DNA of 64,000 nt from Citrus sinensis (taxonomy: Eukaryota; Streptophyta; Magnoliopsida; Sapindales; Rutaceae), in assembly GCF_022201045.2 (NCBI RefSeq), contig NC_068559.1, forward strand, positions 2,206,501 through 2,270,500. Direction: 5' to 3'. The notes under the pieces are model-generated. The model did no database searches and was not told the origin of the DNA. It was given only the letters and a program-made list of their open reading frames with translations. A program made the translations under genes and the position numbers. Below, piece after piece: positions 40,761 through 63,205 of the stretch. How positions within the stretch are numbered: the stretch's first letter is position 1; the number at the start of each line of letters is the position of its first letter.

Positions 40761-41214
40761 TAGGGTTGGTAAAACCCCAGGCGGGGTCCGGGTATTGCAA
40801 TGGTTCGGATTCAATTTTTATATGTTCGGATCGGAGTTTTTAAGCCCAGCGCCGAGCCAGGTTTTAATCCAAGTATTCGGATTTTATATTTTAAATATTA
40901 TGTGTATATATTTTTTAATTTTTTGGTAATTTTATAAGTCTTAAATTTATTTCAATAAAATTTGACATAAAAATATAATCTTTAAGTATTTAAAATTTTA
41001 TATATGTATAATAAAATAGTCATATAAATATAAGTGTTTAAAATAATATATATTTTATAATTTTTTTAATAAAATATGAGTTCCGAACTGAAATATGAAT
41101 TTATCAAGTGATGTCTAAAATTGATCTTATTTCATACCCAAACCAAATAATACCCCAATCACAACACTCGAATACGGTCCAGTCCGGACTGGATGGATAT
41201 TTTTGCCAGCCCTA
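40761..41214 (-). mobile_element. hAT-type miniature element, relative of 1143-1579
   Basis: Read on the minus strand it starts TAGGGCTGGCAAAA and ends TTTTACCAACCCTA. Its AT-rich core is collinear with and closely similar to the core of the element at 1143-1579, for example TGTCAAATTTTATTGAAATA in both. The GC-rich ACCCGG ends are more worn, and the flanks no longer show a clear 8-bp duplication, so this copy is older. Confidence 0.75.
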
Positions 41215-41445
41215 CCTAAAATGCTTGCACCACGAGTTATATGCCAATTTGACACATTTGAAGGGCATTTTAGTCTTTTCGTTAAAGTATTGAATTAGAT
41301 TTTAAAACTTGTTCAATATTTTGTCAAAATAACTCATCAACTGCTAATCTCTTACAAAATTACTCATCAAAAGCCCAAAACGAAACCTTAAAACTTAAAA
41401 GAAACCCCACTGACACTGAGAGCTCGCTCGGTCGAAATCGAAGCC

Positions 41446-44400
41446 ATGGCCGCAAACGGCAGTAAGAATCCCACAAGGAAGCAGCTGATTGTATCAATTC
41501 TCTGCAAACACCTCTCTTTAGACCATGTAAGCATTAAAAATAATAAATCTTTTCTTCTTACTTCAATTAGTTGCTGTACTAGTCTCATTTCTTGAATAAT
41601 TTCTTTAATGATTCATTGTAACATGCAAATTTTCGTACGATTTAATTGTCTCTAGTAAGTGGGTACTGCTTCTAAATTCTTGCTTGGGTCGTAATAGTTT
41701 TTGGCTGTTGAATAGATTTATGTAAAGTTTGGTGCTTTTCTATGAACGATAGCTGATATGTATAGGTAATTTGGGATGATGGTTATCTTGTGCTGAATTT
41801 GGTGATGTTGTTTAAATTTTACTTGCTGAACTTAGAATTTATTGATGCAGAAAGATTTTTCGAGCAATGCTGCAGAGAAGGATATTAAGACATTATACTC
41901 TGATATCTTAAAGTCTTCGGGAAAGAGATCCAATGATGAGGTAAACTTGATTTTGTTCATCTCTGTGTTGTATATTATCTAGACTGGACAACCAAAATAG
42001 TGGTAGTTAACATTGGTCGAGTTGGATTTTGGTCCAGTTGTATGAATGACTAGAAATCTAGAATGACTAGTGGGCCGACTTCCTCTGCTGCTGTAAATAA
42101 GATAACATCACTTGATGAAGAGAGAGTTTGTACTTTAGCTGTATAGGAGTTGCTTATGCTTGACTCTTGTTGGCAATATCAGTATCGAGCTATTGATTCT
42201 TCATCTGTGAAATTGACTTTGTTTAGGTGATGAAGTGGATAGAGTTTGCAGAAAGTTTTCCTGCTGATTCTAAGGCATGCTTTGATGTTCTTATCAAGTT
42301 AAATGAAGAGTTGGCTACAAAATCTGTGCTTTTGGGCAATGGATTGAGAACTTCCGAAGCAGATGTTATTGTGTTTTCTGCAGTACATTCTTTTGTGGTA
42401 TGCATTTTTCATCTTATTCTACAGTTAGTCTTCATTTGTGAGTGTATGCTTTTGCGTGTTGCTAGATAATTGTTCGGACAGCAACACTGTTGGACAACTG
42501 TAATGCTTCTATTAATTTACTCTAGTTATATTGCTTTTCTCCTTAATGAGCTTGATTTTTACTTTGAGTTGAGGAAAAGGGGAACTTTGGGATATAAAAC
42601 ATCAAAAAAGGAACTTTATCATCCTTTCTGAAGCAATTATGTGAATTTTGATGTTGTCTTTTATGCGGATACTTGTTCTCAGGTAGGCCTTGCAAATTTG
42701 GACCAAGGAAAGATGCCACACGTGATGAGATGGATGGACTACATACAGGTGGGAACACTTACAGATCTTGTTCAGTTAAAAAATTGAGACATATCTGGAG
42801 AAGTGATCTGGACACCCTTTTATCCTTCTCGAAATACAGAAAATATAACTATCTTGTGCTTGTAAATGTCTTGTCATTATATGTCACAGAGCAAGGAAGC
42901 TTTGGGTGATTTATTTGGGACAATATCGTTAGAGAAGCCTGGATTTGAACCACCGGTGAGTTATATTCCATGATTACTTAGTGTTATTTCAGTGTTTTAC
43001 ATTCCTTGTGTGAATAGAGATAGGTGGGTTAATTGGTAAAGTAAATATATACATTTCAGTAAATGTAGTAAATGTGATATTATAGTTGTTACATAGAGGT
43101 TGCTTGAATATTTAAACTTGAAACACACAGACAAAAAGTTTCTTCTGATATAAGGACCCTTTGCCCCTTGCTTCTCAGTCATTTTGTGTTCCAATCCTTC
43201 CTCCAAGAGAGAGGGAAAAAAATTGCAAGTTAGTTGTCTACTAATCAAGCATTTTCTTGATTAAGTTTTTGATGTTCATTATAAATTTTAGTTGCATGGA
43301 GCAAAAAGTGCTGTGGATTCAAATGCAAAAAAGACCGTGCAAAGCACAAATAATGCAGAAAAGTCAGAAGCGCCCTCAAATTTAAAGTCCGGAGATGCTA
43401 AGGTAATTGTTTTTTGGATTTGTCTTAATACATACTTGGCATTATATGATTTTAAGTCTCTTAATAAAGATCCCTATTAAAAATTTGTTGAAAAATCATC
43501 TTATTTGATAATAAAAATGCAAAGAACAATTTTTTGTTTTTGAATAAAAGGAAAAACTATTCTGTCCTTGCATTATTCGACCTATACCAGCTTTTGTCAT
43601 GGATCAAAGTTTTAGAGTATCATTGTGGTTTTAGATATGTCCATCTTGGTAGAATTCTTAGCCAATATGACATGTCTACTTTGTTATTTGAGAACTTAAA
43701 AGAAAGGGGATACGGCTCTTCAAGAGAAGAAGAAATCAGTGGAAACAGAAGCTGTTGATAAAGACAAGACAAAGAAGGCTGTGGGAGACAAGGAGGCTGG
43801 TCAAGAAAAGAAGAAATCATCTGAAACTGCAGCAGTGGACAAGGACAAAGAACTTAGTGTCAGTTTACTGAATATTCAGGTTGGTCTTATTCGCAAATCA
43901 TGGAAGCATCCATCTGCTGATAGGTATGCTTACAAGCTCTATTCTTGAATTATTCTTTTCTTCAAAAAGCCGAATTGATGCACTCTTAATTGAAGTAGTA
44001 TTAACTTCTGAATTTTCTGAGATCTGATGTATGGTTGCATTTATCAATATAAGAAAACATAATTTTTACTCTCTTACTTGAAACGTAGTTTATTGGTTGA
44101 GGAGATAGATGTTGGAGAAGCCAAGTTGCGGCAGGTAGTTAGTGGTTTGGCAAAATATTGTAATCCAGATGACTTGACGGTATAATTGCTTCCTCAGTTA
44201 AAGAGCTACTCTCATATGCATTTTTATTGGTTTTTGAATAATTGAATTCTGAAGCTAGTGTTCCTGTGCTGTTCAGAATCGTCGTGTTGCACTGATTATA
44301 AATGTTAAACCTGGAAAGCTACGGGATGTGATGTCGGAAGGATTGGTAATGTTTTGGCATTTTCATCAAATATGTGTTTGCTAACTGTTTTCAAATAAGG

Positions 44401-45581
44401 ATTATGACTTTTAAGGAGTGCAATTTTTACTGGCAGCTTTACCTTATGTTATAAACAATTCTAGAGCAATGAAATTGATTTGTCTTCGTGCTTGCAATTC
44501 CTCTCTTTAGGTGCTTTGTGCTTCAAATGAAGATCACACCAATGTAGAGCCTTTACTTCCTCCAGAAGGTGCAAAAATTGGAGAGCGCATTTCATTTTCT
44601 GGGTAAGCACGACAAAATTGCCTAAATACCTGTTGTTCCGTATTTTAGTGAAATATTTTAAGATAATATTCTCCATCACCCTGTTTAGTTTCTTGAAGTT
44701 TGACAATCTCGGCATACCCCAATATGGTCCTGACACCATGGCTGTATAATATGGCTTGAAAGATAATTTGACGTGCCAAATTTTCATTTGATTGTTTAGT
44801 GCATAGACAAAGGAACAAGGATTATACAAAATGAGAACTGAAGATGGTTCAGTTCCTTGTATAAATAACCAATGCATGCCAATTTCAGCTTAACAATAAT
44901 ACTGAATAAGCAAAATTTTCTCCCATCCCTATTAATACTGCAAAAATTGTTTTCTCCCCAGTATTTGCTTCATCTTACATACGATTTTTCATATCTTTTA
45001 CAGGATCGATGGAAAACCAGAAGATGTTCTAAATCCAAAAAAGAAGCAGCTGGAGAAGATTACGCCGGTATGTCTTCCTCTTTTCTACACTTGCCAATTT
45101 GTGGCTATTACTTTCTAGTTCATACCTCGCATATCCAAACTGTTCATTACCTTCCACTCTTTATTTAATTTCAGAAATGAGTTTGCTCATTATTTATTAA
45201 GACAAAAAATTATAGAAATGCGAGATACTTACGGGTGATGTGAATTGTTCATTAGTAGCATGGTTAAATATTTAAACTTATTTGGGGATTCTGCCATCCA
45301 CATGTCCTTGATATTAGATCTGAAATGTATCAGCAAATCATGAGCTATAGCCGTGAATTGCTAATAGTTTCAGCATTAGTTGTATCTATTAATGGTTGTG
45401 TCAAGTCTTGAGCAAATGTGGTCATTAGAGACTCACTCATTTTCCGTATATAATTCTGGCTTTTTCATGGGTGCAGAATCTGTTCACGGATGACAAGGGT
45501 GTGGCCACCTTCAAGGGTATACCATTCATGACATCTGCAGGGCCGTGCACATCATCCATTCCTAAGGCAAGCATCAAATGA
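41446..45581 (+). CDS. AIMP1/Arc1p-like tRNA-binding aminoacyl-tRNA synthetase cofactor
   Basis: Twelve exons: 41446-41526, 41851-41940, 42227-42397, 42683-42748, 42890-42955, 43292-43402, 43703-43923, 44089-44179, 44277-44345, 44511-44602, 45004-45067, 45477-45581. All are GT..AG and in phase, giving 408 residues. Residues 1-140 form a GST-C-like helical domain (MPHVMRWMDYIQ), as in Arc1p and MetRS. A Lys/Glu-rich linker (about 145-243) holds a duplicated motif, EKKKSVETEAVDKD and EKKKSSETAAVDKD. Residues about 245-408 are an EMAP II-type OB-fold tRNA-binding domain (LNIQVGLIRKSWKHPSAD, NRRVALIINVKPGKLRDVMS, VLCASNEDHTNVEPLLPPEG, GERISFSG). Such proteins deliver tRNA to cytosolic synthetases. 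The start of exon 7 is the weakest splice call. The Arabidopsis counterpart is At2g40660. A damaged duplicate lies at 51798-53715. Confidence 0.92.
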
Positions 45582-47768
45582 TGAAAACCACTGTTAGGAC
45601 CATAAACAAAAAAACTGAAAGCTCCGGCCCCGTTGATGGGATTTTGTTTTGGATTTGAACCTTACCTGTCGATGTTACAATCTACAAACATGTTTTGTGT
45701 AAGCTCTTTTGTTCCTGGAGCAAGTGTCACTCTACAAAAATGAAATTTTTTTTGCGAATACTTTCATGAGCTGTGCATATAACAAATGTTTAAAAGTGAA
45801 AAATAATCTCATAATCAAACACGGGAGTGAATCTCATAATATAATAGAAGGAAAGATTTCAAAATTTAAAAATAAGACTAATAATGGTAATCACTAACTA
45901 GATTCTTGGACGTTTCTCCATGATCCGTACCGATACAGCTCCGCATGAACAAATTACCATTGATGTAGATTCTGTTCAGCAAAAATGTTACCATTTGCTT
46001 GCAATGTTTATCTGTTTTCATAAAATTCAAAAATTATATCATATCATTATGCGTATCTTTGAATTTGGAACAACTTCATGTTCCTCATATAACATCATAT
46101 CATATCAAATCTTGTATATCAACCCACTTCAGATTTCATAATTTGCACTAAATAATTTTTCATCAGACTAACGATGCAACAATTTTCTTTTGTGCAAATT
46201 GATGTTGCATAACGTAATTCGATAAATTAGAACACCACATATCTTACATAATTTATTTTTATTATTTATATGTTATGCAACCAATTATCTAAGTTAAATC
46301 TTTTTTTTTTTTTGTGCAATGAATGAAGGGCATGCAAATTGCATTGTTTTAGACATTTTGCATGATTGCATCTACTTAATTGGGTAAGATTATGATATTT
46401 TAAATTCTCTAATGCAAATATTGACATTTTTTAAAAGTGAAATTCAAATTGTCAATCTGTTGACTGTTGTACAAAATTCAAAAAAAAAATTTATTTGCAT
46501 ATCTGTCCAGCTGCCTATGAGATTCCAAAGTCGTATCAAATTGGATCTTTATGGCATAAGATTGATCTTATTCTTACTATCCAGTTTTGAACCACTTCAT
46601 ATCACATTAAATCTTCCATTTTATTTTCAAACTTCACGCCAGTATCAGCCCAATTCATCTTTTCTTCATTTACGCCCACCAAACCCTAATAATAACAACT
46701 GATGTGACATATATCAGATACATTGTGAAATAGTTAACTATGTAATGATTATTTATAATTTAAAATTGTTTGGCATAACGTGTCATATTTTATAATTTAC
46801 CACTCGATATATGAATGATATATCATATACCACATTATTTAAGACGCAAATTTTTTTAAATTTTATTCAAGATGTTTACCATTATTCTTTCATCAAATTC
46901 AGGCAAGACATTAAAATCAAGAGGAATTTTACTTTACATTCGTTAAGAGTAGTATATCGTGCTTAATTTTACCGTCACTCTTCCCAAATTGATTCATTTA
47001 TATTTATTTACAAATTAGAAAATGTAACACATATTTTCAAGAGTATATAGCAGACAACTTAGGACATTTGTTGTAGTAACGAAAATAAAAAAAAAATTGT
47101 AATTGAATCGAACAAGTTGGATGCATGATAAAGGTGAGCCTAAAAAAAAAAAGAAAAAAAATAGGAATCCCAAGAGAATTTTTGGCCCCCCACATACGAA
47201 GTTTTTGACTTTTACAAGTGTTTAAAATGGGAAAGAAATCAATAAAATCACGTTTTTATTTAAACAAAATCTGGGAGAATCTATGCAAAATCTTATGATT
47301 ATCCTAAAACTAAGACAAAATAATCTCTAAATTGCGGGAAGAAAATAAGTTAGAACAGAAACCTAATATTATACATGTGGTCCAAAATCCCACATTACGT
47401 ATAAACTTGTTCTTACTGCATGAAGATCTTCAGAAAAAGATGGGGACCGATTCAATCAAACCTAAAAATAAAAATAAATATAAAATGAGAAACCCCAAAA
47501 AGGATCACGAAATATCTGTGATATATCTTCTTTGATTTTAATGTCATCTCCTATAACAATTCATCATTCATTATAATTACAAATTCCTCTGATCACCCAC
47601 CAACTTGCTTATTTCTTTTTCTTTTTTTTTTACTTTTTAAATACCATCTTCACAAATTTCCTGTGAGTTTGTTTTGTCTCAATTTTGTTACATAAGAAGT
47701 GCTTTTGCTTTCTGCTTCTGCTTAATTTTTTAGCATCAACACACAGCAGTGTGTGACTGTGTGCCGTA
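45582..47768. other. Intergenic between AIMP1-like and response regulator genes
   Basis: About 2.2 kb of AT-rich DNA with no gene. It must hold the promoter of the response regulator. Several ATATCATATC-like repeats occur near 46040-46120 and 46800-46830. Confidence 0.5.
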
Positions 47769-48585
47769 ATGGATGCTTGTGGTGTTGCTTCATCATCATC
47801 ATCATCATCATCAAATCCAAAACCACCCCATGTTTTGGCTGTTGATGATAGTATTGTTGATCGCAAAATTGTAGAAAATTTGCTCAAAAACTCCGCTTGT
47901 AAAGGTACTTTTAATTACTCTTGACACGAAAAGAGTAAATTTTTTCCCTCCCATTTTTTGACAGTCACAAATTGTATAAATTGATTTGGCAGTGACAACA
48001 GCAGAGAATGGGATGCGGGCACTGGAGTTTCTGGGCTTAGTTGATGAACAAGAACAACAAAATAACCTGAACAGCAATGTAAATATTTTTTTTTTCAATT
48101 TTTAGTTCTTAATTGTGGGAGTGATAAGCAATGTATGTAAATGGGATCGATTTGTTTCATTCATTGCAGGGCACAAAGGTGAATTTGGTGATTACAGATT
48201 ATTGTATGCCAGGAATGACGGGATACGAGCTTCTAAAGAAAATTAAGGTGCTTTATAATTAATCTTCTTGGATCTGCAACTCTGGTTTTGCAAGATTCAT
48301 TTCATTCAATCTTTGTTTTTTTTGCAGGAATCATCAGTTATGAAGGAGGTTCCGGTTGTGGTTGTGTCGTCGGAGAACATTCCAACTCGTATTAACGAGT
48401 AATTATTCGCTAATACTACGTGATTTCTTATGCTAATTTGCAATAATTTTTTTTATTTGTGTCAATCTAATGAGAATTTCAATCTGCATATCAACAGGTG
48501 CTTAGAGGAAGGGGCTCAAATGTTCATGCTCAAGCCACTCAAACCATCTGATGTCAAGAAACTGACAGGCCATTTGGTCAATTGA
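47769..48585 (+). CDS. ARR16: Type-A response regulator, ARR16/ARR17 type
   Basis: Exons 47769-47904, 47993-48078, 48170-48247, 48328-48398 and 48498-48585 join to 152 residues. After a run of eight serines comes one receiver domain: VLAVDDS with acidic Asp 26/27, the phospho-acceptor D84 in [20 protein letters not shown], and the conserved K136 in [15 protein letters not shown]. There is no DNA-binding output domain and only a short C-terminus, so it is type-A, a negative feedback regulator of cytokinin phosphorelay that accepts phosphate from AHP proteins. The short tail and [10 protein letters not shown] wording fit ARR16/ARR17 rather than ARR5/6/7 or ARR8/9. Being next to the AIMP1-like gene and near GLY1 matches ARR16 (At2g40670), while being near an IRK-like gene matches ARR17 (At3g56380), so it is probably the shared ancestor-type gene of both. 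Confidence 0.93.
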
Positions 48586-49214: not shown

Positions 49215-50270
49215 AGCTGCGAAAATTACTCACCAAAACCAAGAACAAAAAACAAAAAATCCTGGAAAGGGTTACCTTTAAAGTTCCCTAACGGGGAGAA
49301 GACTGGCAATTTTGATTTTGTGCAAGAAGAATATGAAAGATAAGAGAGTATTCAATGTGAGAGACTTCTCTGGATTGAGCAAGCAAGATAACAAAATAAC
49401 CAATTGAGAGGGCAACGCAATGCGACTGCAAAGCCACTCGTGACTCGTGAGCCGGTTGAAACTTGCAGCCGCGTAGATAGCGTGTGCGTGTAATATGTCT
49501 CTTGCCTCTTGCGTGTAATTTTAATACTACGTGCTACCGGCCAACAAACAACCTCTTGGGAAAGTATGAGTTCAACTAGTGAAAAAACAACTGATTCATT
49601 TGACAATTTTCTATTCTCAGATAAGATTAAAGATGGGAATTTTTTCTGGGGCAATCTGTGTTTTATAATAATACTCATATTTGAGTATATTTATAATATA
49701 AAAGTGTTACGTACTCTCTTTTTTTTTTTTATGCGTATACATTATTTTTCATGTAATATGGTATGGTATATACATATCTCAACCAATTAGATAAGAATAA
49801 ATGCATACGTGACAAAAATTTAGCGAGTGACCAGAACATTCAATACTTTTTTATAGTTAAGAGCAGGTTTTGTTGAAGGAAAAAAAGAGTGTATTTTAAA
49901 AGTATTTAATTTTTTTTTAATTATACTTAAGAGCAAGTTTTTTTTTTTTAAAGGTTTCAACTGAGGAGTTTAGATGTCTTAAATAATATGGGTAGTCATA
50001 AATTAGATAGATATGTGCTAATAAATACCGTCCTCAACACCTAACATATCACATCTCCTAAATGAGTTTTTAAAAATTTTAAAATATTAAGGAGATGATT
50101 ATGTGACAATGTCAATACCGTTCATTGCAAAGTTAACAACGTTGTCCATTAATTAAATCAAACTAACAATATGAGTATTATTTAAAAATTAATAATCATC
50201 ATAAATAGGCCACCAACTATGAGATAAATTATTTGTACATCTATATGGCCGTACTTGTGTGTGTGTGATC
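49215..50270. other. Intergenic upstream of the small protein
   Basis: The first 300 bp probably contain its promoter and leader. After 49700 the DNA is AT-rich with several T-runs. No gene is seen. Confidence 0.45.
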
Positions 50271-50556
50271 ATTCTCAGGTGCGGACACGTTCTTCAACTT
50301 TGGATTTTAATAGGCTTATTTTTTTAATGAACTATAAAGACATATAGTTTAATAGCATTCAAAATTATACTTGTGTCTGTGTGTGAGATCATTATCAGGT
50401 ACGGACACGCTTTTCAACTATGGGGTTTAATAGGCTTATTTTGTAATGAACTATAAAGCCATATGATTTAATAGCATTCAAAACTAACTTTCTTAAACTG
50501 CACAGCTTAAAAAGCATGTCTGTATAAAAAAGTAAGGGAGCCTGCACTAGAGAATG
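50271..50556. mobile_element. Miniature element with later 117-bp internal tandem duplication
   Basis: Ends are TTCTCAGGTGCGGACACG on the left and CTGCACTAGAGAAT on the right. The interior TTAAACTGCACAGCTTAAAA and CATGTCTGTATA match the element at 24724-24909. The left part is doubled: units start at 50252 and 50369, period 117, and the doubled unit includes 19 bp of flanking ACTTGTGTGTGTG sequence. The duplication therefore happened after insertion. Confidence 0.55.
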
Positions 50557-50835
50557 ACTCTCTCTCTCTCTCTCTTCTCTCTCTATATATAAGATAAAGA
50601 TGTAAATCTATTGAAAAATAAAAAATATAGATGTCAGATGAAATGGTTGTTGCTATATGCTCCAATAACGAACCATTGGTACTCTCTGATGGAGTATTAG
50701 AACAGAAAAATCCGTTAGATAATAAACTGTTGGTTTTAAGCCATCATTTAAAAAATAATTATTTTAAGTAAATAATGCTGCTTATTAATTGTTTTTAACG
50801 CGAAAATGATTTTAAATCCCAATCAAGCGCGGTGC

Positions 50836-51232
50836 AGCCCATGAAGCCCAATTCCGGCCCAAATGACGTCGAATAGTGGCCCAAATGTCATTCACGGTAA
50901 GGATCGACAGAAAAAAAAAAAAATCAGAAAACATTCCAACCCCCTCCCTGAATCAAATATCAAAACATCTATGAATTAGGATGTTGCTGCCTCAATGCCG
51001 TGCCCGTGCAGGTCTTTCAAGTTTCTTGATTGGATAAATTATCAACTTTCAGAAATTTCAGTAGAAATGAGAAGAGAATGAAATCTTTAAACTGTTGCAC
51101 TAGAGCAGGGGTAATTGCCTGAATCTTGTCCCATTTTAATGCAAATCAGTTCTGTCCATCATTTCTTGAGATTATTATACCATTGAAGAGAGCAGAAACA
51201 ATAACTTTTCAAGCCAGTAGTGTTTTATTATG
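50836..51232 (+). pseudogene. Fragment of GLY1-type gene (duplicate of 60.5-62.0 kb)
   Basis: Positions 50836-50875 (ATGAAGCCCA...GGCCCAAATGACG) match the upstream flank of the GLY1-type gene at 60548-60575. Positions 50980-51175 match the end of its exon 3, intron 3 and the start of exon 4 (GTGCCCGTGCAGGTCTTTCA at the exon/intron border). Positions 51185-51232 match intron 4 near 61925-61972. Exons 1, 2 and most of 3 and 4 are missing, so it is non-functional. The order is kept, with internal deletions. Confidence 0.8.
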
Positions 51233-51245
51233 AAGTGCAAGCTAG

Positions 51246-51797
51246 CTAGTTATTGATTTTTGTATTAGGAAACTCTGGCTGAACAAAGCTCTTGCGGCTG
51301 ATGAGCTTTCCCACCACCGTGTAGTACACGGTGTACTTGTTCATCTTCGTATGAAATCCATCTTCTTCCATGAAAGCGTTGTAATACGTAGCAGCTGAAA
51401 GAGCCTCATGCTGAACATAAGAATCCTGTGGTAATGCTTTAAAAAGAGCATGCTTCAGCTGATATATTGTTGTGATTCTTGGCCAAGTTGTTGAGGCCAA
51501 CATCGCAGTTAGTCAGCCGGATTAGTGTTGTAAAGTAAAGAAACGTAGCTTGGAAGGCACCCCAATGGTCGCATGCCAGGGACTAACATATTGGAGACCG
51601 ACTCTTTCTTGATTTCGGACAACATGCATGCTTCCAGTGTTGGTGACTATAACTGATGTGTACTCTTCAACTTGTTCGATGTATTCGCCATTCAAGAATC
51701 CGTATCTGTTGTCATTTCTTCCAAGATTCAGAATGAATAAAGCCGTTTCAAGCTTTATTGAAGGGCACGGCAAACCCTTTCTCTTGCCGAGAGTCAT
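51246..51797 (-). pseudogene. Unidentified interrupted coding remnant
   Basis: On the minus strand, about 180 codons of protein-like sequence end in VQPEFPNTKINN. They include hydrophobic and aromatic patches such as LETALFILNLGRNDN and NKYTVYYTVVGKLISRK. Composition is balanced, unlike the AT-rich surroundings, so it was once coding. It looks broken, with about two breaks. I do not recognise the family: it is not GLY1 or AIMP1, the sources of the flanking pieces. A fragment of another host gene or of an endogenised virus gene are both possible, and I cannot choose. It abuts the two duplicated pieces directly. Confidence 0.5.
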
Positions 51798-53715
51798 CGT
51801 ATGCCACAGAGCAAGGAAGCTTTGGGTGATTTAATTGGAAAGATATCCTTAGAGAAGCCTGGATATGAACCTCCGGTGAGATATATTTATTCTATGATTG
51901 CTTAGTGTTCCATTGCAGTGCTTTACATTACTTGTGTGAATAGAATCAGGTGGGTCAACTGGTAAAGTAAATATATAGCTGTAGGTTTCAGTAAATGTGA
52001 TACTACAGTTGTTACGTAGCGATACAGTCAAAAAGTTCCTTCTTTGATCCCTTGCTTTCATTCTGTGTTCCAACCCTTCCTCCAAGGGAGGGGAAAAACA
52101 GTCACAAACGTTAAACCCTGGAAAGCTACGGGATGTGAAGTCCAAAGGATTGGTAATGTTTTGGCATTGTCATCAAATATGTGTTTGCCTACCGTCTTCA
52201 AATAAGGATTATGACTCTTGAGTCTTGAGGAGTGCATTATTTACCGGCAGCTTTACCTCATGTTTAAAACAACTCTAAAGCAATGAGATTGATTTTTCTT
52301 TGTGCTTGCAATTCATATCCCACTAGGTGCTTTGTGTTTTAATGAAGATAACACCATTGTAGAGCCTTAATTTACTTCCACCAATAGGTGAAAAAATTGG
52401 AGAGCGCATTTCATTTTCTGGGTAAGCACGACAAAATTATAGAGAAGTGAAGACTTTTATTGCCAAAATACCTCGTGTCTCATGTTTTAGTGAAACATTT
52501 TAAGATAATATGCTCCATCACCCCTGTTTAGTTTCTGGAAGTTCAACAATCACGGCACATAGATGGCGTTAAGTATAGGCGAACAAGATGGTCGCTTAAG
52601 ACCTCAATTTTAAAAAAAGCCTCAATTTTTTAGTATTAGTAATAATTCTCTAGTTAATAAAATCTTTTAACAAAATTATATGTGTGGTTGAAAAGTCTAT
52701 TAGACATATCTCTAATTAATAATTATCCTATAATTAATAATAATAATTTTTTATATAAAAACCTATAATTGGTTATCTTATTGTTAAAGAGATATAATTA
52801 ATAATATTGTCTAACCATTAATTTATTCAGTATTAATTTTTCTAATAAAAATAACTAAATTTTTTATCTTTTCAACTTCTTAAAAAAGCTCAATTATTCA
52901 ACATTAGAATCTTTGACTTTGAGTATTCCTTTTAATTTCTACTAAAAATCTTATAATCTAAAAAATTATAGATGAAAAATTTCTTGTTCTCTTCTCTACA
53001 ATGAAGATTATTACATGCATTAGTTCATTCAAAAAAGAAAAAGAAAAAATTAGTTACTTGAAATACAAAGTCCATATCCATTATCTAACCATCAATTCAT
53101 GATCTCAACTTTTTATGTGCCACCATTTTAAATATTCTATTTGAAAATAGTATTGTTCTCATTTATTCGTTTGCTTCTTTTTGTATAATTTCTAATGATA
53201 AATTTTAGATTTTGTTTTTGAAAATTTTTAGAATCTTCTTGATTATTTGTTGAAATTCAAGAATTAAAACTAAAATGGATTTTCAGTTCTTTATTGTTTT
53301 ATTGAGTATTGAAATTACTAAATAAAAAGAAGTCTCGTAAAAAAAAAAAAAAGTTCGCCTAAAGCCCCTAATACTGTAAAGCCGGCCCTGCCACGGCATA
53401 CCCCAGCATGGCCCCTGAGATCATGCCCTGTAATAGGGCTTGAAAGATCATTTGAAGTGTCAAATTTTCATATGATTTTTTAGTGCTTATACAAAGGAAA
53501 AATGGTTATTCAAAATGAGACCAATGCATGCCAATGTCAGCTTAACAATAATACTGAATGAGCAAAATTAGGAATGAAATGTTTCAGCACATCATCCATT
53601 CTTGAGGCAAGCATCAAATGATGAAAACCACTCTTAGAACCATAAATCAAAATACTGAAAGCTCCAGCCGCTTTAATGGGATTTGGATTTAAGCCTCACC
53701 TGTCGATGTTACAAA
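51798..53715 (+). pseudogene. Duplicate AIMP1-like pseudogene with hAT insertion
   Basis: Compared with the intact gene at 41446-45581, 51810-51875 is an unbroken copy of exon 5 (SKEALGDLIGKISLEKPGYE) with part of intron 5. Within intron 5 the copy then jumps (near 52100) into exon 9 (KPGKLRDV), missing exons 6-8. Exon 10 follows at about 52327-52422 with in-frame damage. Intron 10 is interrupted by a hAT element at 52558-53390 and resumes. At about 53586 it jumps to the last codons of exon 12 and the 3' flank, ending near 53715. Exons 1-4, 11 and most of 12 are absent. It cannot make the protein. Confidence 0.88.
52558..53390. mobile_element. Non-autonomous hAT-like element inserted in the AIMP1-like pseudogene
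   Basis: It interrupts sequence that is continuous in the parent intron. The flanks TCACGGCA (52550-52557) and CCACGGCA (53391-53398) match at 7 of 8 positions. The right end, inverted, reads CAGGGCCGGC then AGGGGCTTTAGGCGAAC. The left end is a worn version (CATAGATGGC...TATAGGCGAAC). The interior is AT-rich and non-coding. An A-run lies at 53339-53352. Confidence 0.8.
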
Positions 53716-54531
53716 CACGGAGTCGCGTTTTGTTTTGATTTTTTTTTAATCCTTTTTTATATTGAGCATAGCCATTTCCATGGTACTTGAACATGATGAG
53801 TGAAATTTTTTCTAGGTCAGCGGCTTATATATATTGAGCATATATAGCCGTATCAAATTCTTTTATTTTATAAATATTGTTGATGCCAAAATTTGGTCGG
53901 GTCGGTGTGTGGGCTATCTACCAGATTTTAATACTAGGATTTAAATTTATTTGTTGGAGAGAAGGTCTCTAGCTTCGATTTGTCATTTTGAGCAGAAATT
54001 GGCGACTAGGAATCCAATCTAACAAGCAGGAAATGACGAGCACGATTTTAACCTGGCGAGCAGAAGTTTTTCTGTTGTATTTAGGAATCCAATCAAGTTA
54101 GTATTTAGGATTTTCATGGGATAAACGAGTGTACAAATTTTGTGTAAAAATGAACAAAAAGGAGTAAAAAATGAACAAATGTAAGAAGAAATTCTTCCAT
54201 AAATAGGTAAGAAAGATATAAGGGGGCAAAAATAATAATAAAATAGAAAGGATAAGAAAAATCAGAGATAAGTTTTCTAATTTTTATTAAATTATGTAAG
54301 ATTTTCAGAGTTCAAAAGGTCCCCTTATCCTTAGTCTTTTGAGAGTTTTATAAGAGTTAAAAATCCTCCCTCCCATGGACATCGGTGGAGTGGGCCTTTT
54401 TGGATAAAACCTACCCTTTATCCTCCCTATATTCTAGGGTTATGGATTTGTTGGATAAGACTCTATTTCCCACTCCTCAAAAATCACGCAATTGTGAGCT
54501 TTATGGATAAAAATCCAATCCCTAGAATTTT
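53716..54531. other. Intergenic, possibly part of an old LTR-like sequence
   Basis: A stretch starting near 53878 with TGTTGATGCCAAAATTTGGT has a mixed composition. Ignoring the two DNA transposons inserted after it, it could continue at 55406-55490 and 59188-59290. That would be about 840 bp, the size of a solitary LTR. No partner repeat or target duplication was found, so the idea is weak. Confidence 0.3.
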
Positions 54532-55396
54532 GGGAAATTTATAAAAATAACCATAAAATTTTTATTATTTTCATAATTAACCCTCTCAATTTTTTTCTAT
54601 CAACATTAGTCAAACACACACTTTTCTCCCCAAATTACCCTTCTTTACAAACCAAAAGCAACATTCTTTCTCCCCTTTCGTCAAACCAAAGGTAGTTTTC
54701 CACTCTTGAATCATCAACCAACGGCGACGGCAAAATGCAACGATAAAAGTGAAATCCGATCATAATCTATTCAGATCCAATACTAATCGGCATCACATAG
54801 TGGTATGAGTTATTTTCTGAACTTGCTCGAAAGTTTCAGTGAAAAGCGAGTCGTAGGTGAATCTGGCGACAGGCTGCCTGTCGCACGAAGCCTGTCGCTC
54901 CAAGGCTTGGTGCGACATGCAGCCTGTCGCACGAAGAGGCAGATTCACCCACGCTAGGCAGTGGTTCCCTCATGAATGCCAATGAAAATTGAGAAAGAAA
55001 CACTCCCAAAACAACAACAACCACCACAAACACCACCACCACCACCACCATTATTCTCAAACTACAACCACTATTATTCTAAAATTTCATTTTAAATTAA
55101 TGAAAATAAATAAAATGGCTAACTTAGGGTTTTTTCAAGGCTGTAGATGGTAGATCGGACGCTAATGAGGGATGGAGTCGCCGCCGACGAGTGCTGAAGT
55201 TGCCGTCGACGCCACCGACGATGGGAGGTTCTTCGGTTTGGGAGAGATGGGAGAAAGAGAGATTGTTGGGGGAGAGATGAGAGAGAGGGGTATTTTGGTC
55301 TCAAAGGCTTTTTTATGGCTAATGTTGATAGAAGTTTGTTTGGAGGGTTAAGATGAAAAAAGTCAAAATGTTTATGGTTATTGGTGTAAATTTCCC
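54532..55396. mobile_element. Mutator-like element with perfect 9-bp target duplication
   Basis: Ends are GGGAAATTTATAAAAATAAC on the left and, inverted, GGGAAATTTACACCAATAAC on the right; the similarity runs inward about 90 bp (to CTATCAACATTAG). Flanks TAGAATTTT at 54523-54531 and 55397-55405 are identical. The interior is GC-richer than the ends: 54840-54960 has GCCTGTCGCACGAAG repeats between inverted GGTGAATCTG/CAGATTCACC, and 55140-55230 is CGCCGCCGACGA-rich. This resembles non-host filler or captured sequence. There is no transposase. Confidence 0.85.
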
Positions 55397-55490
55397 TAGA
55401 ATTTTAGACGAGACATGAAGTTGGCTTTGATTAGGTCTCTTTTTCATAAAGTCAACTACTCGCCCACCACTGCTCGCCAACATTCTCTAG

Positions 55491-58400
55491 TAGGGGTGGG
55501 CAAACCTAACCCAACCTAACCCAAGCCAATCCAACACAATTAAGTTTTAACGGGTAAAGTGAGTTTTTATGGGTTAATTGAGTTAATTTTTTTGAATCCA
55601 ATTAATAATTGTGTTGGGTTGGGTTAATTGTGATGAATCCATTAAACCCAACCTAACCCATATAAATAATAATAAGAAGAAAATTTTTAATTACAAAACC
55701 CTAATGACCTAAATGACTAATCTATTATTTATATTCTTTTTATTGTTTTTATAAAAGAGACTATTTCATTATTGAATTTACTGCTCTAAACTCTAATTCT
55801 ATATCTAAACTCACTCTCTCAATTTTAAAATCTCTATTATCAGACAAGTAAGTATTTTCTCCGATCTATTTATTCTAGATTCTTTTTTATTTTATGAACA
55901 TGCATGTTTTTTATATAGAATATTGGAGGTTAGAACTGACGCCTATAAGCAAATTTAGTGCATTAACTGTCAAGAATTGGAATTGACGGCCAATTATTTA
56001 AAGAACTGGGAAATGCATGATTATTTGATCAAACGCTCGTGATGTGAGCAACGTTACCAGCATTAAAAATTTAATATAAAAATATTAATAATTGAGAAAT
56101 GCACGCATGTTCTAAAGAAGACAATTCTTTCTATAGATTCTTTTTTTTATTTAATAATTGAGAAATGCATGCATGTTCTAAAGAAGAAAATTCAGTGCGT
56201 TAACTGTCAACTAACAAAATTTACTCATTGACAAACCATGAAATAATTCTTTTTTATTTTATGAACATGCATGTTTCGGAATTCGGATATAGAATATTAG
56301 AAGTTGGAATTGATAGCCATAAGAAGACAAGCCATGAAAACATTATAAAAAGGTTCTTTATTTAAATATAGATTGTTTTATTGTTATCAATATTTATTCA
56401 TTTATTGTTATTGTTTTTGATAGATGGATAACAATTCGACTTTGCAAGTCAATGATGCTGATGTTCGAGCAACTGAAAATCCTAATGACGAGCGTAAAAA
56501 GCGAAAACTTATGAGATCACCATCAAATGTGTGGGAACATTTTACCAAGTATGTCGGAGGTAATAGATGTAAGTGTAATTACTGTGAAAAAGATTATTCT
56601 TGTGAATCAGGTTTTGGGACTAAGAATATGTTGAATCATTTGAAGTTAAGATGTCAAAAATATAAGAATTTTGTGGCAGGAGAGGATAAAAAGCAAAAGG
56701 GTTTGGTGAATGCAAAAATATCCAATATATGTGCTCCTGGTAGTCTAGTACCTGTGGGATTTAGTAAGGAAGAATGGAGAAAGACATGTGCTAGGATGGT
56801 AATTCTTGATGAGATGTGTTTTAGCTCTGTTGAGAAGGAAGGGTTTCGATATTTCTATAGTGTTGCTTGTCCAAAATTTACTCCTCCTTCCAGAAGAACA
56901 ATTGCCAGGGATATTTACCAACTTTACTTAGATGAGAAACTTAATTTGAAAAGGCTATTTATTGAAAATACCCAAAGAGTTTGTATAACCACTGACTGTT
57001 GGACTTCTATTCAAAATATCAATTATATAGTAATCACATACCATTTTATTGATTATGAATGGAAGTTACACAAGAGAATATTGAGTTTTTCTACAATTCC
57101 CAACCATAAAGGAGAGACAATAGGGAAGCTGATTGAGAGTTGTTTACTAGAGTGAGGTATTGAGAGGATCTTTACAATCACGGTTGATAACGCAACTTCA
57201 AATGATGTGGCTGTAAATTATGTTAAAAAGAAACTAAAAAATTGGAATGGTGATTGCCTAATGTTAGATGGGGAATTTATACACATAAGATGTTGTGCTC
57301 ATATTGTTAACTTAATTGCAGCTGATGGGATGAAGGACATGCATGATTCAATTGCTAGCATTCGCAATGCCGTGCGATATGTAAGATCTTCAGCCTCACG
57401 GTTACAAAAATTTAAGAAATGTCGTGAGCATGAAAAAATTGAAAGTAAAAGTACAGTGACATTAGATGTGCCTATAAGGTGGAACTCTACTTACTCGATG
57501 TTAACAAGTGCTTTAAAATTTTGAAAAGCTTTTGACAGGTTGGTTTACGATGATGAACCTTATATGATATATTTTTCAGAAGATGATAGTGGAAAAAAGA
57601 AGGGTCCACCAAAGGATATAGACTGGGCTAATGCTGAAATATTTGTGAAATTTTTGGAGTCTTTTTACAAAGTCACTTAAAAATTTAGTGCTTCTTTATC
57701 TGTTACTTCTCACATGTACTTTCATGACTTACATTCAATTAAATCTGAGATGACATCTTTTGCTGAGAGTGAAGACTTTTTATTAGGTAGTATGGTTGCT
57801 AGCATGAAAAAGAAGTATGATAAGTATTGGTGAACAATTGAAAACGTTAGCACATTACTGCTTGTTGCAATTGTTCTTGATCCAAGGTATAAATTAGATT
57901 ATGTTACATTTTTTATTGGTGAAATGTACGGTGAAACAAAAGTAGAATAGGTGGCAAAGGGAATCAAAGGGCTTATGTCACACCTTTATGAATTCTACCT
58001 TAGATATAGTCACGGTATTGCCAATAACCAAGTTTCTAATTATGCACCTTTGGTCAATGTAGTTGATGTGGAAAAGGAAAATGGTAATAAGGATTTTTGT
58101 ACTGCAATGCTATTTACGTTCAAGAAAATGAAAGAGAAGGTACATGCTGAAATAAAATATGAGGTAGATAGGTAATTTGTTGGAGCCTAGTGAAGATCCA
58201 TGTGATACTAAATTTGATATTTTAGAATGGTGGAAAGTTAATTCTTCAAAGTATCAAATTTGATCACATGTTGCAAGAGATGTGTTTGCAATTCCAGTAT
58301 CAATAGTAGCTTCTGAGTCTGCATTTAGTACTGGAGGGCGTATTCTTGATCCGTTTTGAAGTTCATTACATCCAAAAACAATAGAAGCTTTAATATGCTC

Positions 58401-59179
58401 ACAAAATTGGCTACAATCTTCCAGTTGCATTAGATAGTGAGCCATCAATGGAGGAGAAAGAATTTTATGAATCACTTAAAGCAGGTAACATTTTTTTTTA
58501 TTGCTTGTGGTGTATATTTTTTTATATTGTTTATTTATTATTTCTTAAACTAATTTTTCATTGTCATTTATTTGTTTTAGAGTTGGTAAATATTCCAGTT
58601 GAGCCTGTGGCTGTTGATTGACGTGGTAGCATATAATTGCTCTGTAAATTTATTATCTTATAAATTTAATTTTGAAAGTAATTTAGTTTTAATTTCTCCT
58701 TTTTTTTAGTAAATACTTAACAAGTTAATAGTACATAATTATAAATCAATTTCATTTTATTACAGGACATGATACTAGCTGATTATCTAAAAGGTGTGAA
58801 TTTGGAATTAAAAAAAGAGATGCGGGATGCCAAGAACAAAGTCTAGAAGCTCGTTGTTGAAATTTTCTCAATTTTAATATAGTTGGTTTTTCAATTTTCT
58901 TTGTCGAATATTTCATGTTATAACATATTTATATTTGATTTCAATAAGTTTTATTTCCAGTTTCATATATTTTTTATTTAATTTTTAATTTTGATCTGAC
59001 ATTTAAATCTTCAACCTAATCAACCCAATCCAACCCGATTATCTAAGGGTTGGGTTAGATTGGGTCGAATATGTTTATTTAATTGAGTTGGGTTAATTTT
59101 ATTTCAACTCATTTAATAATGGGTTTGGTTGAGTCTTGACAAACCCTACTCAATCTAACCCAACTCATGTCCACCCCTA
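55491..59179 (+). mobile_element. Full-length but degraded hAT transposon
   Basis: Terminal inverted repeats are TAGGGGTGGGCAAAC (left) and TAGGGGTGGACATGAG (right, inverted), with AACCCAACC/GGGTTGGGTT subterminal repeats at both ends. Flanks TTCTCTAG (55483-55490) and CTCTCTAG (59180-59187) match at 7 of 8 positions. The 3.7-kb body contains one transposase gene (next entry). Length, ends and duplication all fit hAT. Inactive now because the gene is broken, but the ends are well preserved. Confidence 0.9.
56424..58480 (+). pseudogene. hAT transposase (RICESLEEPER/DAYSLEEPER-like), broken
   Basis: The first 243 codons (56424-57152) are open: a BED zinc finger at about residues 36-78 (VWEHFTKYV, CNYCEKDYSC, NHLKLRC), then GFSKEEWRKTCARM, TPPSRRTIARD and ITTDCWTS (transposase core Asp). 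The same frame continues with TVDNATSND, HIRCCAHIVNLIAADG and LDVPIRWNSTYSML (the conserved W of the hAT insertion domain), interrupted by stops at 57153, 57522, 57678, 57831 and 57948. A one-base shift follows near 58170, and the C-terminal hAT dimerisation domain (ILEWWKVNSSKY, VARDVFAIPVS, ASESAFSTGGRI) lies in the next frame at 58200-58440, with two more stops. Most stops are TGA, several in positions where the family has Arg, Cys or Trp, as expected of unselected mutation. It cannot make transposase. Confidence 0.88.
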
Positions 59180-59610
59180 CTCTCTAGACTGGTTGGAAGC
59201 TCACCAACACTCTTTGGACTACTTGGAATGGCTAGATGAGCAGAGTCAAGTTTTAAGGAAAACCTGATTTTGGGTGCTTTATTTTATCATGCAAACATAT
59301 CATTTTTTTTTCCTAAAACAACACCTCAATATCAAATAAGATATTAATAGATGAACGTCACATCAGTTATGATTCAAGTTGAACTAAAATGATTTCAGGA
59401 CTTTAGGCATATGAGAATTTGCTCATTTTCTGAATTTAAGGAATTTGACCTTTCTTGTCTCATGTGTTCCCAATTATCAGACTAATCTTATTGACATCTT
59501 TAGTATGTGTCTCTTCTTAAAAAGCTTACCCAGAATTTTAAAGAACTAGTAGTAAATTATTAGATGATGATAATATAATATTTGTTGTAAACTATTAACT
59601 TCTCCACTAA

Positions 59611-59918
59611 CTTAAGTCCCAAGTTAGAATGAAGTTTACCCTCCTCTCATTTGCATCCTATAAATGTAGGTGTATGTTGCATTATTGAGTAACTAAGAAA
59701 AAGGCTAAATAATAGGCAATAATAAGGTATTGTCTAGTACTTTGTTTTAATCTAAATTTTTTTATTTATAACAGAAAATTTTGGAATAAAACAATGTCCT
59801 AAATAGTATCCTGTTAATTATTATTTAGTTTTTTTCCTAATTACTCAATAATGCAACATACACATGTATTTATAAGATGCCAATGGGAATGTGATATACT
59901 TCTTTCTAGGGACTTATT
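59611..59918. repeat. Fold-back element with long inverted arms
   Basis: The left arm, from about 59611 (AAGTCCC ... TTGCATCCTATAAATG ... GTGTATGTTGCATTATTGAG), is mirrored by the right arm ending about 59918. The best-matching 60 bp are roughly 59650-59715 and 59815-59885. The arms together cover most of the 308 bp, so transcript or single strand would fold into a long hairpin. It is non-coding. The superfamily is unknown; no target duplication was established. Confidence 0.75.
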
Positions 59919-60346
59919 GCTTGTTTGGTATAATTTATCTAATGGTTATAATTACTTATTTAATCTCTTAAACTTTTATGAAAATTTTTGATATTGTTTA
60001 GTTATTTTTTAGTAGAGTTTTTGAAGATTATAAACTATTTTGTCTCCATTAGTAAAATCTGAAATTTTGTGCTTCAACTTTTGTGAGTAGAGGTTGAAAA
60101 ATCTTTTTTAAATATTAAAATGTTAAAATATTTTTTACTTATTTAAAAATTGTTATTTCATTTTTTATAACATAATTTTAGAAATTTTGTCTGTTTAAGT
60201 AATTTTATAATTTTTAATAAAATATCTCATTGACAAGCAAACGCTTAAAATTTTTAAGTAAAAATTCAATTTATAAAAATTTAATTAATAAAAAAGTTAT
60301 TTAAATAAATTTTATTTAAAAAATTATACCAAACGAAACTTTAAAA
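59919..60346. mobile_element. AT-rich miniature element, same family as 31750-32725
   Basis: Ends are TGTTTGGTATAATTT (left) and, inverted, GTTTGGTATAATTTTTTAAA (right). The interior has the TTTTTAGTAGAGTTTTT and TTATAACATAATTTTA order seen, inverted, in the cluster at 31750-32725. Non-coding. Confidence 0.65.
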
Positions 60347-60664
60347 CTTAAGTGGTGCAGTCAATGAACATATTTGTGGTTGCTCATTTATTTTCTTTTG
60401 GAATTTCAACGTTTAATTAATGGTGTTGTTTTCAATTGACAAGAAGCCCACCCCTTTAGACTACACTATTCTTAAAAGGGTTAAGACAAGAATTCAGACG
60501 GGCTCATATAGTAACATTCTTTTTAACCTTTAGCAAGTATCATTTATATGAAGCCCAGAAATGGCCCAAATGACGAACGCTCGTAGTAAAAGGATTGAAA
60601 GAAAAAGATGAAAAAAAAAATACCAATTCTCACTCTCAAGTCTCGCAGTTTCATCTGCGAACAA
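60347..60664. promoter_or_regulatory. Upstream region of the GLY1-type gene
   Basis: About 300 bp between the last miniature element and the start codon. Part of it (60548-60575) is duplicated at 50836-50875, which shows the upstream flank went along with the gene fragment. No clear TATA box is seen. Confidence 0.4.
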
Positions 60665-63205
60665 ATGGCAGCCTCAAATTCAATAGAGCCGCGCTTGTTC
60701 CTGAATCCAATCTTCACTACATCAACAACAACTAACTCATCAACCTCACTTCATATTCAAAATTTCAAACTCAAACTCCCACATTTTCCCACAAAAAACC
60801 CAACACTTGTTTTCACTCTCAACTCTTCTTCTGGTTCTGCCACGACCAATAATAATAATGATAATACAATCATCACCCCTTATCCTGATGACCCGGACCC
60901 GGAACCAGTTTCTGCTGTTTCTTCAGAAACCAGGACCCGGGACGGTAGGGACCGTCGTAAAATTGTTAAAGTTGCGTGGGATAAGTTGGTCCGGTGGTCT
61001 CGCACTTGGCGTTCCAAGGCAAAGACTGACATTCTTGAACGTACTAACAAGGTTAAAAAGTTTTACATATTTATATCTTGCATTGCAATGTTCAGATTAC
61101 CATGCCTTTTTTTTAATATAATATGGGAAAGTTTTATACAAATGATCCATTTATCCATGGTGGGTGATAGTTTTATTTTTTTATTTATTGTCATTTTTTT
61201 TTTAATTTTTACTTTGGTAGGTGGTGGTGCTTGGGGGAGGGTCATTTGGTACGGCAATGGCAGCCCATGTGGCAAATAGGAAGGCTCAATTGAAAGTTTA
61301 CATGCTCATGCGTGATCCTGTTGTTTGTCAATCTATAAATGAAAAACATTGTAATTGGTAAGGATTATCTCTGTTAAATAATAACTTAAGCAATGCTTTG
61401 ATATATAATGATGCAATTTGTTGGCGTATATATTCTGTTTTTAGTCGGTACTTCCCAGAACAGAAGCTTCCAGAGAATGTGATTGCAACCACGGATGCCA
61501 AAACTGCTTTACTTGGCGCGGACTATTGTCTCCATGCTGTGCCCGTGCAGGTCTTTCAAGTTTCTGTATTCTGTTGCTTTTTATTGTATTATCAAATATT
61601 AAAAGTTTCACAAGAAATCTTTAATCTGTTGCACTAATTTAGTTTATGAAGCAGGGTTGATTGCCTGAATCTTGTCCATTTTAATGCAGTTCAGTTCATC
61701 TTTTCTTGAGGGCATCTCGGATTATGTTGATCCTGGCTTGCCTTTCATATCCCTTAGCAAAGGCTTAGAGCTGAACACATTGAGGATGATGTCTCAGATT
61801 ATTCCCCAAGCATTGAGGAACCCTCGACAGCCTTTCATTGCACTATCAGGTCCTTCATTTGCACTGGAACTCATGAATAAATTACCAACAGGTGACTTAC
61901 ATTTATTGAGTATATTACAACAATGTAAGAGAGTAGACACAATACCTTTTTAAGTCAGTAGTGGTTTTTATAGTCTTGCTATTGGCTTCTGCTTTTGCAG
62001 CAATGGTCGTGGCATCAAAAGACAGAAAATTGGCAAATGCAGTTCAGCAGCTACTTGCTTCTAAGCACTTAAGAATCAGCACTTCTAGGTAGATGATCTT
62101 TAGTAAATCCAGTTAATTAATCAAGTGAAAGCAGGAGTTTTCCTTGTTGCTTGCACACTCTAATTTGCAGATGTTCCACATTTCATGTATTCACAAATTC
62201 CAGAGTCTTTACCTTGTATCTCTATCAGTGTCATATAGGTTCTAGTGGTTTATGTTATGGAAAGTCAAGAACCACCGTGATCCATATGTATAATTAAATT
62301 GTTGTGCTCAGCTTGTAACCCCCTTATAACTCCAGTGATGTTACAGGGGTGGAAATTGCAGGTGCACTTAAGAATGTACTCGCAATAGCAGCAGGGATTG
62401 TGGTAGGGATGAATCTTGGGAATAATTCTATGGCAGCTCTCGTTGCACAAGGTTGCTCTGAGATACGATGGTTGGCAACAAAGGTAAATCTTATTTTCAT
62501 AGAAAATTATTCCTCATCCAAAAATAACTTTGTTCTGCAGTTCTAAACTGGTTCTCATATTACCTTCAATAGTCTGCAACTCAATTGAATTCAATTTGTC
62601 TACACTGCTTATTAGAAAAAAAAATGTTGTTTCCCGTATTTCCTTCTCTCTCACAAAATCTCCCTCTACTCCATTTCTTGAAGATGGGGGCTAAGCCAGC
62701 GACAATTACCGGTCTATCAGGGACTGGGGACATCATGCTTACGTGTTTTGTGAATCTTTCAAGAAACAGAACAGTTGGAGTCCGTCTTGGATCAGGAGAG
62801 AAGCTCGATGATATACTGAGTTCCATGAATCAGGTACTTGTAAATCCCTCCATGCAGCCTTTGCTAGGCAAATTGTAGCCACTTGGTTTTTTCATACAAT
62901 GACCGAGTGTTGTAGGTAGCCGAGGGTGTATCAACTGCTGGGGCTGTGATTGCTCTGGCTCAGAAGTATAATGTTAAGATGCCAGTTTTGACAGCAGTTG
63001 CTCGGATCATAGACAATGAACTAACCCCAAAGAAAGCTGTTCTCGAATTAATGAGTCTCCCTCAGGTCATTTGAACTCTCAATTAAACTCAAGAAAACAA
63101 CAAAATATTCAGCCTGTCAAACTTAGTTTTCGATTTAAAGATTCGTGAAGAATCTGTTGACTGCTAAACCTTTAATTTCTCTTGTTGTAGGTTGAAGAAG
63201 TGTGA
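60665..63205 (+). CDS. GLY1: Plastid NAD-dependent glycerol-3-phosphate dehydrogenase, GLY1/SFD1 type
   Basis: Nine exons, 60665-61051, 61221-61357, 61445-61550, 61690-61891, 62001-62088, 62336-62483, 62684-62833, 62916-63065 and 63191-63205, join in phase to 460 residues. Residues 1 to about 85 are Ser/Thr/Asn-rich, a plastid transit peptide. [20 protein letters not shown] precedes the Rossmann fold [18 protein letters not shown] (130-147). Catalytic-type residues include K234 in [16 protein letters not shown] and K319 in [24 protein letters not shown] and SRNRTVG bind substrate and cofactor. The enzyme reduces dihydroxyacetone phosphate to glycerol-3-phosphate for plastid glycerolipids; in Arabidopsis GLY1/SFD1 (At2g40690) it also supports systemic resistance. 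The ATG at 60665 is chosen because MAAS matches the family; an in-frame ATG lies at 60608. A fragment copy lies at 50836-51232. Confidence 0.95.

What the first reader, a model, noticed from the sequence alone, without database searches (positions are those of the whole stretch)
50836..53715. Chimeric duplicated block made of pieces of two neighbouring genes
A GLY1-type fragment (source 10 kb to the right) sits beside an AIMP1-like fragment (source 6-10 kb to the left), both plus-strand like their sources but in reversed relative order, each with internal deletions that include exons and introns. Introns are kept, so this is DNA-level copying, not retroposition. Order reversal plus deletions suggests unequal exchange or a template-switching repair event, followed by loss.
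Basis: seen in the sequence. Interest (0 to 1): 0.7.

Follow-up and report, generated by a model that had tools for sequence, protein, structure and literature searches.

The report
Decayed tandem-duplication junction between neighbouring genes
A plant chromosome carries a dead patch made of broken copies of two neighbouring genes, most simply the leftover seam of one old tandem duplication that later lost pieces and gained a transposon; it is an ordinary kind of gene relic.

Summary
50.84-53.75 kb holds a GLY1-like fragment (gly1') and an AIMP1-like fragment (aimp1'), both plus strand, introns partly kept, with internal deletions, about 12-15% diverged from intact sources at 60.7-63.1 and 41.4-45.6 kb. 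The "reversed order" needs no unusual event. The locus reads AIMP1 - response regulator - gly1' - gdsl' - aimp1' - GLY1 - DEAD-box helicase. One tandem duplication of the AIMP1-to-GLY1 segment puts a GLY1 copy directly before an AIMP1 copy and leaves a full copy of each outside; gly1' lacks its 3' and aimp1' its 5' part, the sides facing the seam. Their divergences are compatible (0.163 +/- 0.030 and 0.130 +/- 0.012), and gly1' keeps a piece of the GLY1 5' flank. Against it: no duplicated spacer or second response regulator was found, so further deletions must be assumed, and the GDSL piece is unexplained. Patch-type break repair copying three templates is the main rival; no relative's genome was available to decide. 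Known kind of feature; low interest.

The parts
41446..45581 (+). Intact AIMP1-like gene (source of aimp1'), 12 exons, 408 aa, all introns GT-AG
   Evidence: Spliced model; Pfam tRNA_bind E 1.4e-25 and Arc1p_N_like E 1.4e-9; in a genome protein search 13 of 16 matches lie in this locus, one of them aimp1', and 3 weaker ones on C3 and C9
47769..48585 (+). Type-A response-regulator-like gene (ARR16/17 type, named by reading the peptides) between AIMP1 and gly1'
   Evidence: Sequence, ends; exon peptides; no Pfam hit on the 2 exons tested; 46700-48900 matches only itself in the genome
50841..50923 (+). Likely remnant of the GLY1 5' flank (source 60548-60618)
   Evidence: Reciprocal best match, score 36 against 30 and 26 for the next best; alignment, where 3 of 385 random window pairs reached the same score of 44
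50984..51245 (+). gly1': end of exon 3, intron 3, start of exon 4, part of intron 4 of GLY1 (sources 61524-61711 and 61903-61971); later exons absent. BLAST ends at 51231; 51232-51245 is a weak tail
   Evidence: only other match of 50700-51260 in the genome is GLY1
51258..51775 (-). gdsl': GDSL esterase/lipase pseudogene fragment (middle and C-terminal part), internal deletions and frameshifts. BLAST spans 51258-51756; the rest is a weak tail
   Evidence: Matches C1:3314541-3315554 (intact 338 aa, Pfam Lipase_GDSL E 2.3e-12) and a broken copy at C4:3.558 Mb. Pfam gave no hit on the two gdsl' pieces themselves
51785..52557 (+). aimp1' left part: end of intron 4, exon 5, part of intron 5; deletion of exons 6-8; most of exon 9, intron 9, exon 10, start of intron 10. 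BLAST starts at 51793
52558..53390 (.). 833-bp non-autonomous hAT-like transposon; flanked by TCACGGCA / CCACGGCA (7 of 8 bases alike)
   Evidence: 39 other places in the genome among the candidates scored (40 of 290 scored); ends; coordinates; duplications
53391..53747 (+). aimp1' right part: piece of intron 10, deletion of exon 11 and most of exon 12 with about 17 extra bases at the joint, end of exon 12 and 3' flank (source to 45713)
53878..59297 (.). Interspersed repeat seen in two parts (53878-54530 and 59199-59297), probably split by a nested insert that holds a BED-zinc-finger ORF (56424-57152)
   Evidence: The matching parts lie only about 13 and 66 bp apart in copies L020 and L037; genome matches; zf-BED E 1.1e-7
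59613..60346 (.). Palindrome (59613-59916) and a high-copy short repeat (about 59914-60346) in front of GLY1
   Evidence: 1008 first-look candidates, 40 scored
60665..63074 (+). Intact GLY1-type glycerol-3-phosphate dehydrogenase gene (source of gly1'), 8 exons, 458 aa
   Evidence: Spliced model; Pfam NAD_Gly3P_dh_N E 2.7e-41 and NAD_Gly3P_dh_C E 3.2e-50; 8 of 8 genome protein matches are its exons

Best explanation
The block is the decayed centre of one tandem duplication of the segment AIMP1 - response regulator - GLY1. Right after the event the order was AIMP1 (full) - RR - GLY1 (partial or full) | AIMP1 (partial or full) - RR - GLY1 (full). The two inner gene copies became pseudogenes and shrank by deletions, the second response regulator was lost, a GDSL-lipase piece lay at or was put into the seam, a hAT-like element jumped into aimp1', and other repeats filled the gap before GLY1. 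Shown: the pieces, their order, orientation, compatible divergence, deletions, transposon, and the intact outer genes. Inferred: that one duplication made both pieces, that the spacer and second response regulator once existed and were lost, and how GDSL came in. The block itself most likely has no coding function.
For: Both pieces are plus strand, lie between their sources, and have the order that a tandem duplication forces. gly1' lacks the 3' exons of GLY1 and aimp1' lacks the first exons of AIMP1, the two ends facing the seam, while aimp1' keeps the 3' end and 3' flank and gly1' keeps what looks like a piece of 5' flank. Divergences agree within error: aimp1' K2P 0.130 +/- 0.012 (998 sites), gly1' 0.163 +/- 0.030 (219 sites). 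The local intact genes are the only other matches of these stretches. The response regulator sits between AIMP1 and gly1' and a DEAD-box helicase gene follows GLY1, in line with the Arabidopsis locus numbers of AIMP1L At2g40660 (PMC6683005, passages), ARR16 At2g40670 (PMC5366940, passage) and GLY1 At2g40690 (PMC3843702, passages); a helicase at At2g40700 is recalled.
Against: No trace of a second response regulator or of duplicated spacers was found: 46.7-48.9 kb matches only itself in the genome, and 45.6-51.0 kb against 53.7-60.7 kb shows nothing better than E 0.12 (the short GLY1 5'-flank match) by BLASTN, plus strand, and E 0.26 by tblastx. So further deletions, at least two, must be assumed. 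The GDSL piece has no counterpart beside AIMP1 or GLY1 and is about 77% identical to its nearest paralogs, so more diverged than the duplication. No relative's genome was available.
Confidence: 0.66

Rival explanations
1. Patch-type repair: a chromosome break between the response regulator and GLY1 was filled with DNA copied from three templates (GLY1, a GDSL locus, AIMP1) by synthesis-dependent strand annealing with template switches, then decayed.
For: The three pieces are packed closely: 26 and 36 bases lie between the BLAST ends of neighbouring pieces, fewer if weak alignment tails are counted. One piece comes from elsewhere in the genome. No duplicated spacer or second response regulator was found. 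Copying of gene fragments as filler DNA at breaks is a described plant mechanism (passages of PMC7935947).
Against: Orientation, order and position between the sources are then coincidences. The aimp1' source stretch spans 2.8 kb and gly1' seems to reach back to the GLY1 5' flank, long for patches (inference). No source at matching divergence was found for the GDSL piece, which also counts against simple filler.
Confidence: 0.25
2. Gene fragments captured by a transposable element (Helitron or Pack-MULE type) that inserted near its sources.
For: Mosaic of fragments of three genes with introns kept; repeats are dense around it.
Against: The searched parts of the block outside the transposon have no further copy as a block. 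Of all 11 inverted repeats found in 49840-54750, none has both arms just outside the block; one short pair (21 nt, 76%, A/T runs) lies just inside both ends. The identified transposon lies inside aimp1', not around the block. Helitron ends were not searched for.
Confidence: 0.04
3. Assembly artefact.
For: Reads were not available to check the junctions.
Against: Copies differ from their sources by 12-15% and carry an own transposon insertion with a target-site duplication, which a misjoin of near-identical sequence would not give; no N in the window.
Confidence: 0.03

Closest known systems
Non-processed pseudogenes from tandem/proximal duplication in plants (PMC7935947, abstract and passages)
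   Same: Introns partly kept, fragmentary, close to the functional parents, deletions, some flank kept
   Different: Two neighbouring genes are represented together in the order expected at a duplication seam, with a third gene piece between them
Filler-DNA gene fragments from double-strand-break repair ('patching gaps', Wicker et al. 2010; that paper seen only as an entry in the reference list of PMC7935947)
   Same: Closely packed fragments, one from a distant locus, extra bases at a deletion joint
   Different: Both main pieces come from the flanking genes in duplication order and orientation
Complementary loss of genes after tandem segmental duplication (recalled)
   Same: One full copy of each gene survives, on opposite sides
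   Different: Here the surviving copies are the outer ones and both inner ones are dead, as breakpoint truncation would favour

Membership tests
Tandem-duplication seam with pseudogenised inner copies | Direct orientation, pieces between their sources, order right-gene piece then left-gene piece | tested here: met
Tandem-duplication seam with pseudogenised inner copies | Equal age of both pieces | tested here: met
   0.130 +/- 0.012 and 0.163 +/- 0.030 overlap; weak test, 219 sites for gly1'
Tandem-duplication seam with pseudogenised inner copies | Duplicated spacer or intervening gene present twice | tested here: not met
   explained only by assuming deletions. Offered therefore as the likeliest mechanism, not as proven membership
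Tandem-duplication seam with pseudogenised inner copies | Absent from, or more complete in, relatives | not testable with these tools
   The genome search says that this genome has no relatives held
Processed (retro-) pseudogene | Introns absent | tested here: not met
   GLY1 intron 3 and AIMP1 introns 5, 9 and 10 kept wholly or in part
Transposon-captured gene fragments (Pack-MULE) | Long terminal inverted repeats bracketing the fragments | tested here: not met
   All 11 inverted repeats of 49840-54750 seen, longest arm 32 nt, none with both arms just outside the block; in the wider several short pairs (26-38 nt) span the block from kilobases away, 25 of 161 pairs shown
Transposon-captured gene fragments (Helitron) | TC...CTRR ends and 3' hairpin (recalled) | not tested
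   Only copy number was tested
hAT-like non-autonomous transposon (52558-53390) | 8-bp target-site duplication and related inverted ends | tested here: met
   7 of 8 bases here. Other copies: exact 8-bp duplication by script in 2 of 7 printed (L002, L004) and by eye in 2 more (L006, L008); the remaining 3 have 7 or fewer of 8. No transposase tested, so superfamily is a reading of ends and duplication length

The most novel reading that the evidence does not exclude
A single break-repair event stitched together three templates, two neighbouring genes and a distant GDSL locus, into one chimeric insert between those neighbours, without any tandem duplication.
Probability: 0.22. Interest if true: 0.35.

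Novelty: new member of a known kind. Interest (0 to 1): 0.17.

Why it matters
It shows how a two-gene tandem duplication can decay until only a puzzling 'reversed' chimera is left, which helps readers of genomes avoid invoking exotic rearrangements. It has little importance beyond the locus; the seam could serve as a dated lineage marker for comparing relatives.

Tried and rejected
Retroposition: rejected, introns kept. Pack-MULE type capture: none of the 11 inverted repeats in 49840-54750 has both arms just outside the block, and no further copy was found. A source outside the locus for gly1' or aimp1': none found in the genome. A GDSL gene next to AIMP1 or GLY1 as the donor: none found; the nearest relatives are on C1 and at C4:3.558 Mb. 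Homology of the outer flanks as a direct test of duplication: only the short GLY1 5'-flank match, E 0.12; 3 of 385 random pairs (of 400 drawn, those too close together dropped) reached its local score, and the wider scan made it reciprocal best. Pfam on 10 sequences hit 3 (GDSL gene, DEAD, zf-BED); the gdsl' pieces, the response-regulator exons, one AIMP1 exon and two further ORFs gave nothing, so gdsl' rests on similarity to the C1 gene and the response regulator on reading its peptides. Codon-position counts for gdsl' against the C1 gene (39 of 172, 27 of 170, 50 of 171 differences) show only a weak third-position excess and did not settle its history. Literature: of 8 papers listed I saw passages of 2, of 6 one, of 8 one (abstract and passages); two searches were seen as listings only.

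Full report
Setting. It is 34% G+C without N.

Observation. The AIMP1-like pieces at 51793-53747 match 42873-45713, and the GLY1-like pieces at 50988-51231 match 61527-61971, all plus/plus. The sources are intact genes: spliced models with only GT-AG introns give 408 aa with Pfam tRNA_bind and Arc1p_N_like for AIMP1, and 458 aa with both NAD_Gly3P_dh domains for GLY1. The GLY1 protein search finds exons only at the local gene (8 of 8 matches); for AIMP1, 13 of 16 matches lie in this locus (one of them aimp1') and 3 are weaker relatives on C3 and C9.

(a) A transposon of 833 bp, 52558-53390, interrupts aimp1', with flanking TCACGGCA and CCACGGCA; AIMP1 has the same site without the insert. The whole-block search returned 44 matches, which are the block itself and 39 other places of this element, 4 of them in two pieces; 40 of 290 candidates were scored, so the count is a lower bound. 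Exact 8-bp duplications flank other copies (2 of 7 by script; 2 more by eye), so it is hAT-like. (b) Between gly1' and aimp1' lies a minus-strand fragment of a GDSL lipase. It matches an intact gene on C1 (338 aa, Lipase_GDSL) and a broken one at C4:3.558 Mb, at about 77% in both. (c) gly1' begins earlier than BLAST shows: 50841-50923 resembles the 5' flank of GLY1, reciprocal best in a scan of 3995 overlapping windows per direction, so exons 1-2 and most of exon 3 were probably deleted inside the copy.

Decay. aimp1' lacks exons 6-8 (source 43222-44294) and exon 11 with most of 12 (source 44918-45546, with about 17 extra bases at the joint); gly1' lacks source 61712-61902, with a shared TTGAG at the joint. 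These are ordinary end-joining marks (inference). Divergence is 0.130 +/- 0.012 over 998 sites for aimp1' and 0.163 +/- 0.030 over 219 sites for gly1'; segment limits were set by hand from the alignments, and gap-rich parts were left out. At a rate of about 6.5e-9 per site and year (recalled) this is of the order of 10 million years.

Order. The locus reads AIMP1, a response-regulator gene, gly1', gdsl', aimp1', repeats, GLY1, and a DEAD-box gene at C4:2.2713 Mb. Arabidopsis locus numbers place AIMP1L (At2g40660, PMC6683005, passages), ARR16 (At2g40670, PMC5366940, passage) and GLY1 (At2g40690, PMC3843702, passages) close together, so AIMP1 and GLY1 are probably old neighbours and the surviving outer copies sit in the old context. 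A tandem duplication of that segment yields the observed order directly, with the GLY1 3' side and the AIMP1 5' side facing the seam; those are sides missing in the fragments.

Weak points. The duplicated spacer and second response regulator were not found. From aimp1' to GLY1 the DNA looks largely like later insertions: 53878-54530 and 59199-59297 belong to one repeat whose parts lie about 13 and 66 bp apart in two other copies, so the 4.7 kb between them, with a BED-zinc-finger ORF, is probably a nested insert, and 59.61-60.35 kb is a palindrome and a high-copy repeat. That fits loss but does not prove it. gly1' has also lost its own 5' exons, and the upstream flanks of gly1' and GLY1 show no similarity beyond the short match. 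The GDSL piece is unexplained: former neighbour or filler. A repair event with three templates therefore stays open at about one in four or five. Filler-DNA copying and tandem duplication are both described sources of plant pseudogenes (PMC7935947, abstract and passages).

Verdict. Observation correct; the puzzling order is the normal signature of a tandem duplication; ordinary pseudogene block, low interest.

Noticed in passing
window 47769-48585: Type-A response regulator resembling ARR16/ARR17 (by eye), the type whose poplar relative PbRR9 shows sex-specific methylation (PMC5366940, abstract start in listing and one passage); 46.7-48.9 kb matches only itself in this genome.
   Followed up: partly
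window 53878-59297: Repeat apparently split by a nested insert of about 4.7 kb with a BED-zinc-finger ORF; insert boundaries and target-site duplication not worked out.
   Followed up: partly
window 40852-41215 and 1142-1498: Inverted 80%-identical repeat pair; one copy lies just upstream of AIMP1.
   Followed up: no
L038 (C4:3553000-3562000) 4738-5222: A second GDSL pseudogene of the same small family, 1.3 Mb away; a separate 220-bp repeat at 2245-2465 there matches window 40194-40411 at 81%.
   Followed up: partly
window 51769-51782: A 14-base word at the gdsl'/aimp1' joint occurs in the intact C1 GDSL gene in the opposite sense to gdsl' (L039 6251, L010 1986, minus strand) and nowhere else in the window, hinting at a small fold-back at the joint or chance.
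   Followed up: partly
window 9504-11311 and L036 6178-8208: Two cytochrome P450-like genes (named by eye).
   Followed up: no
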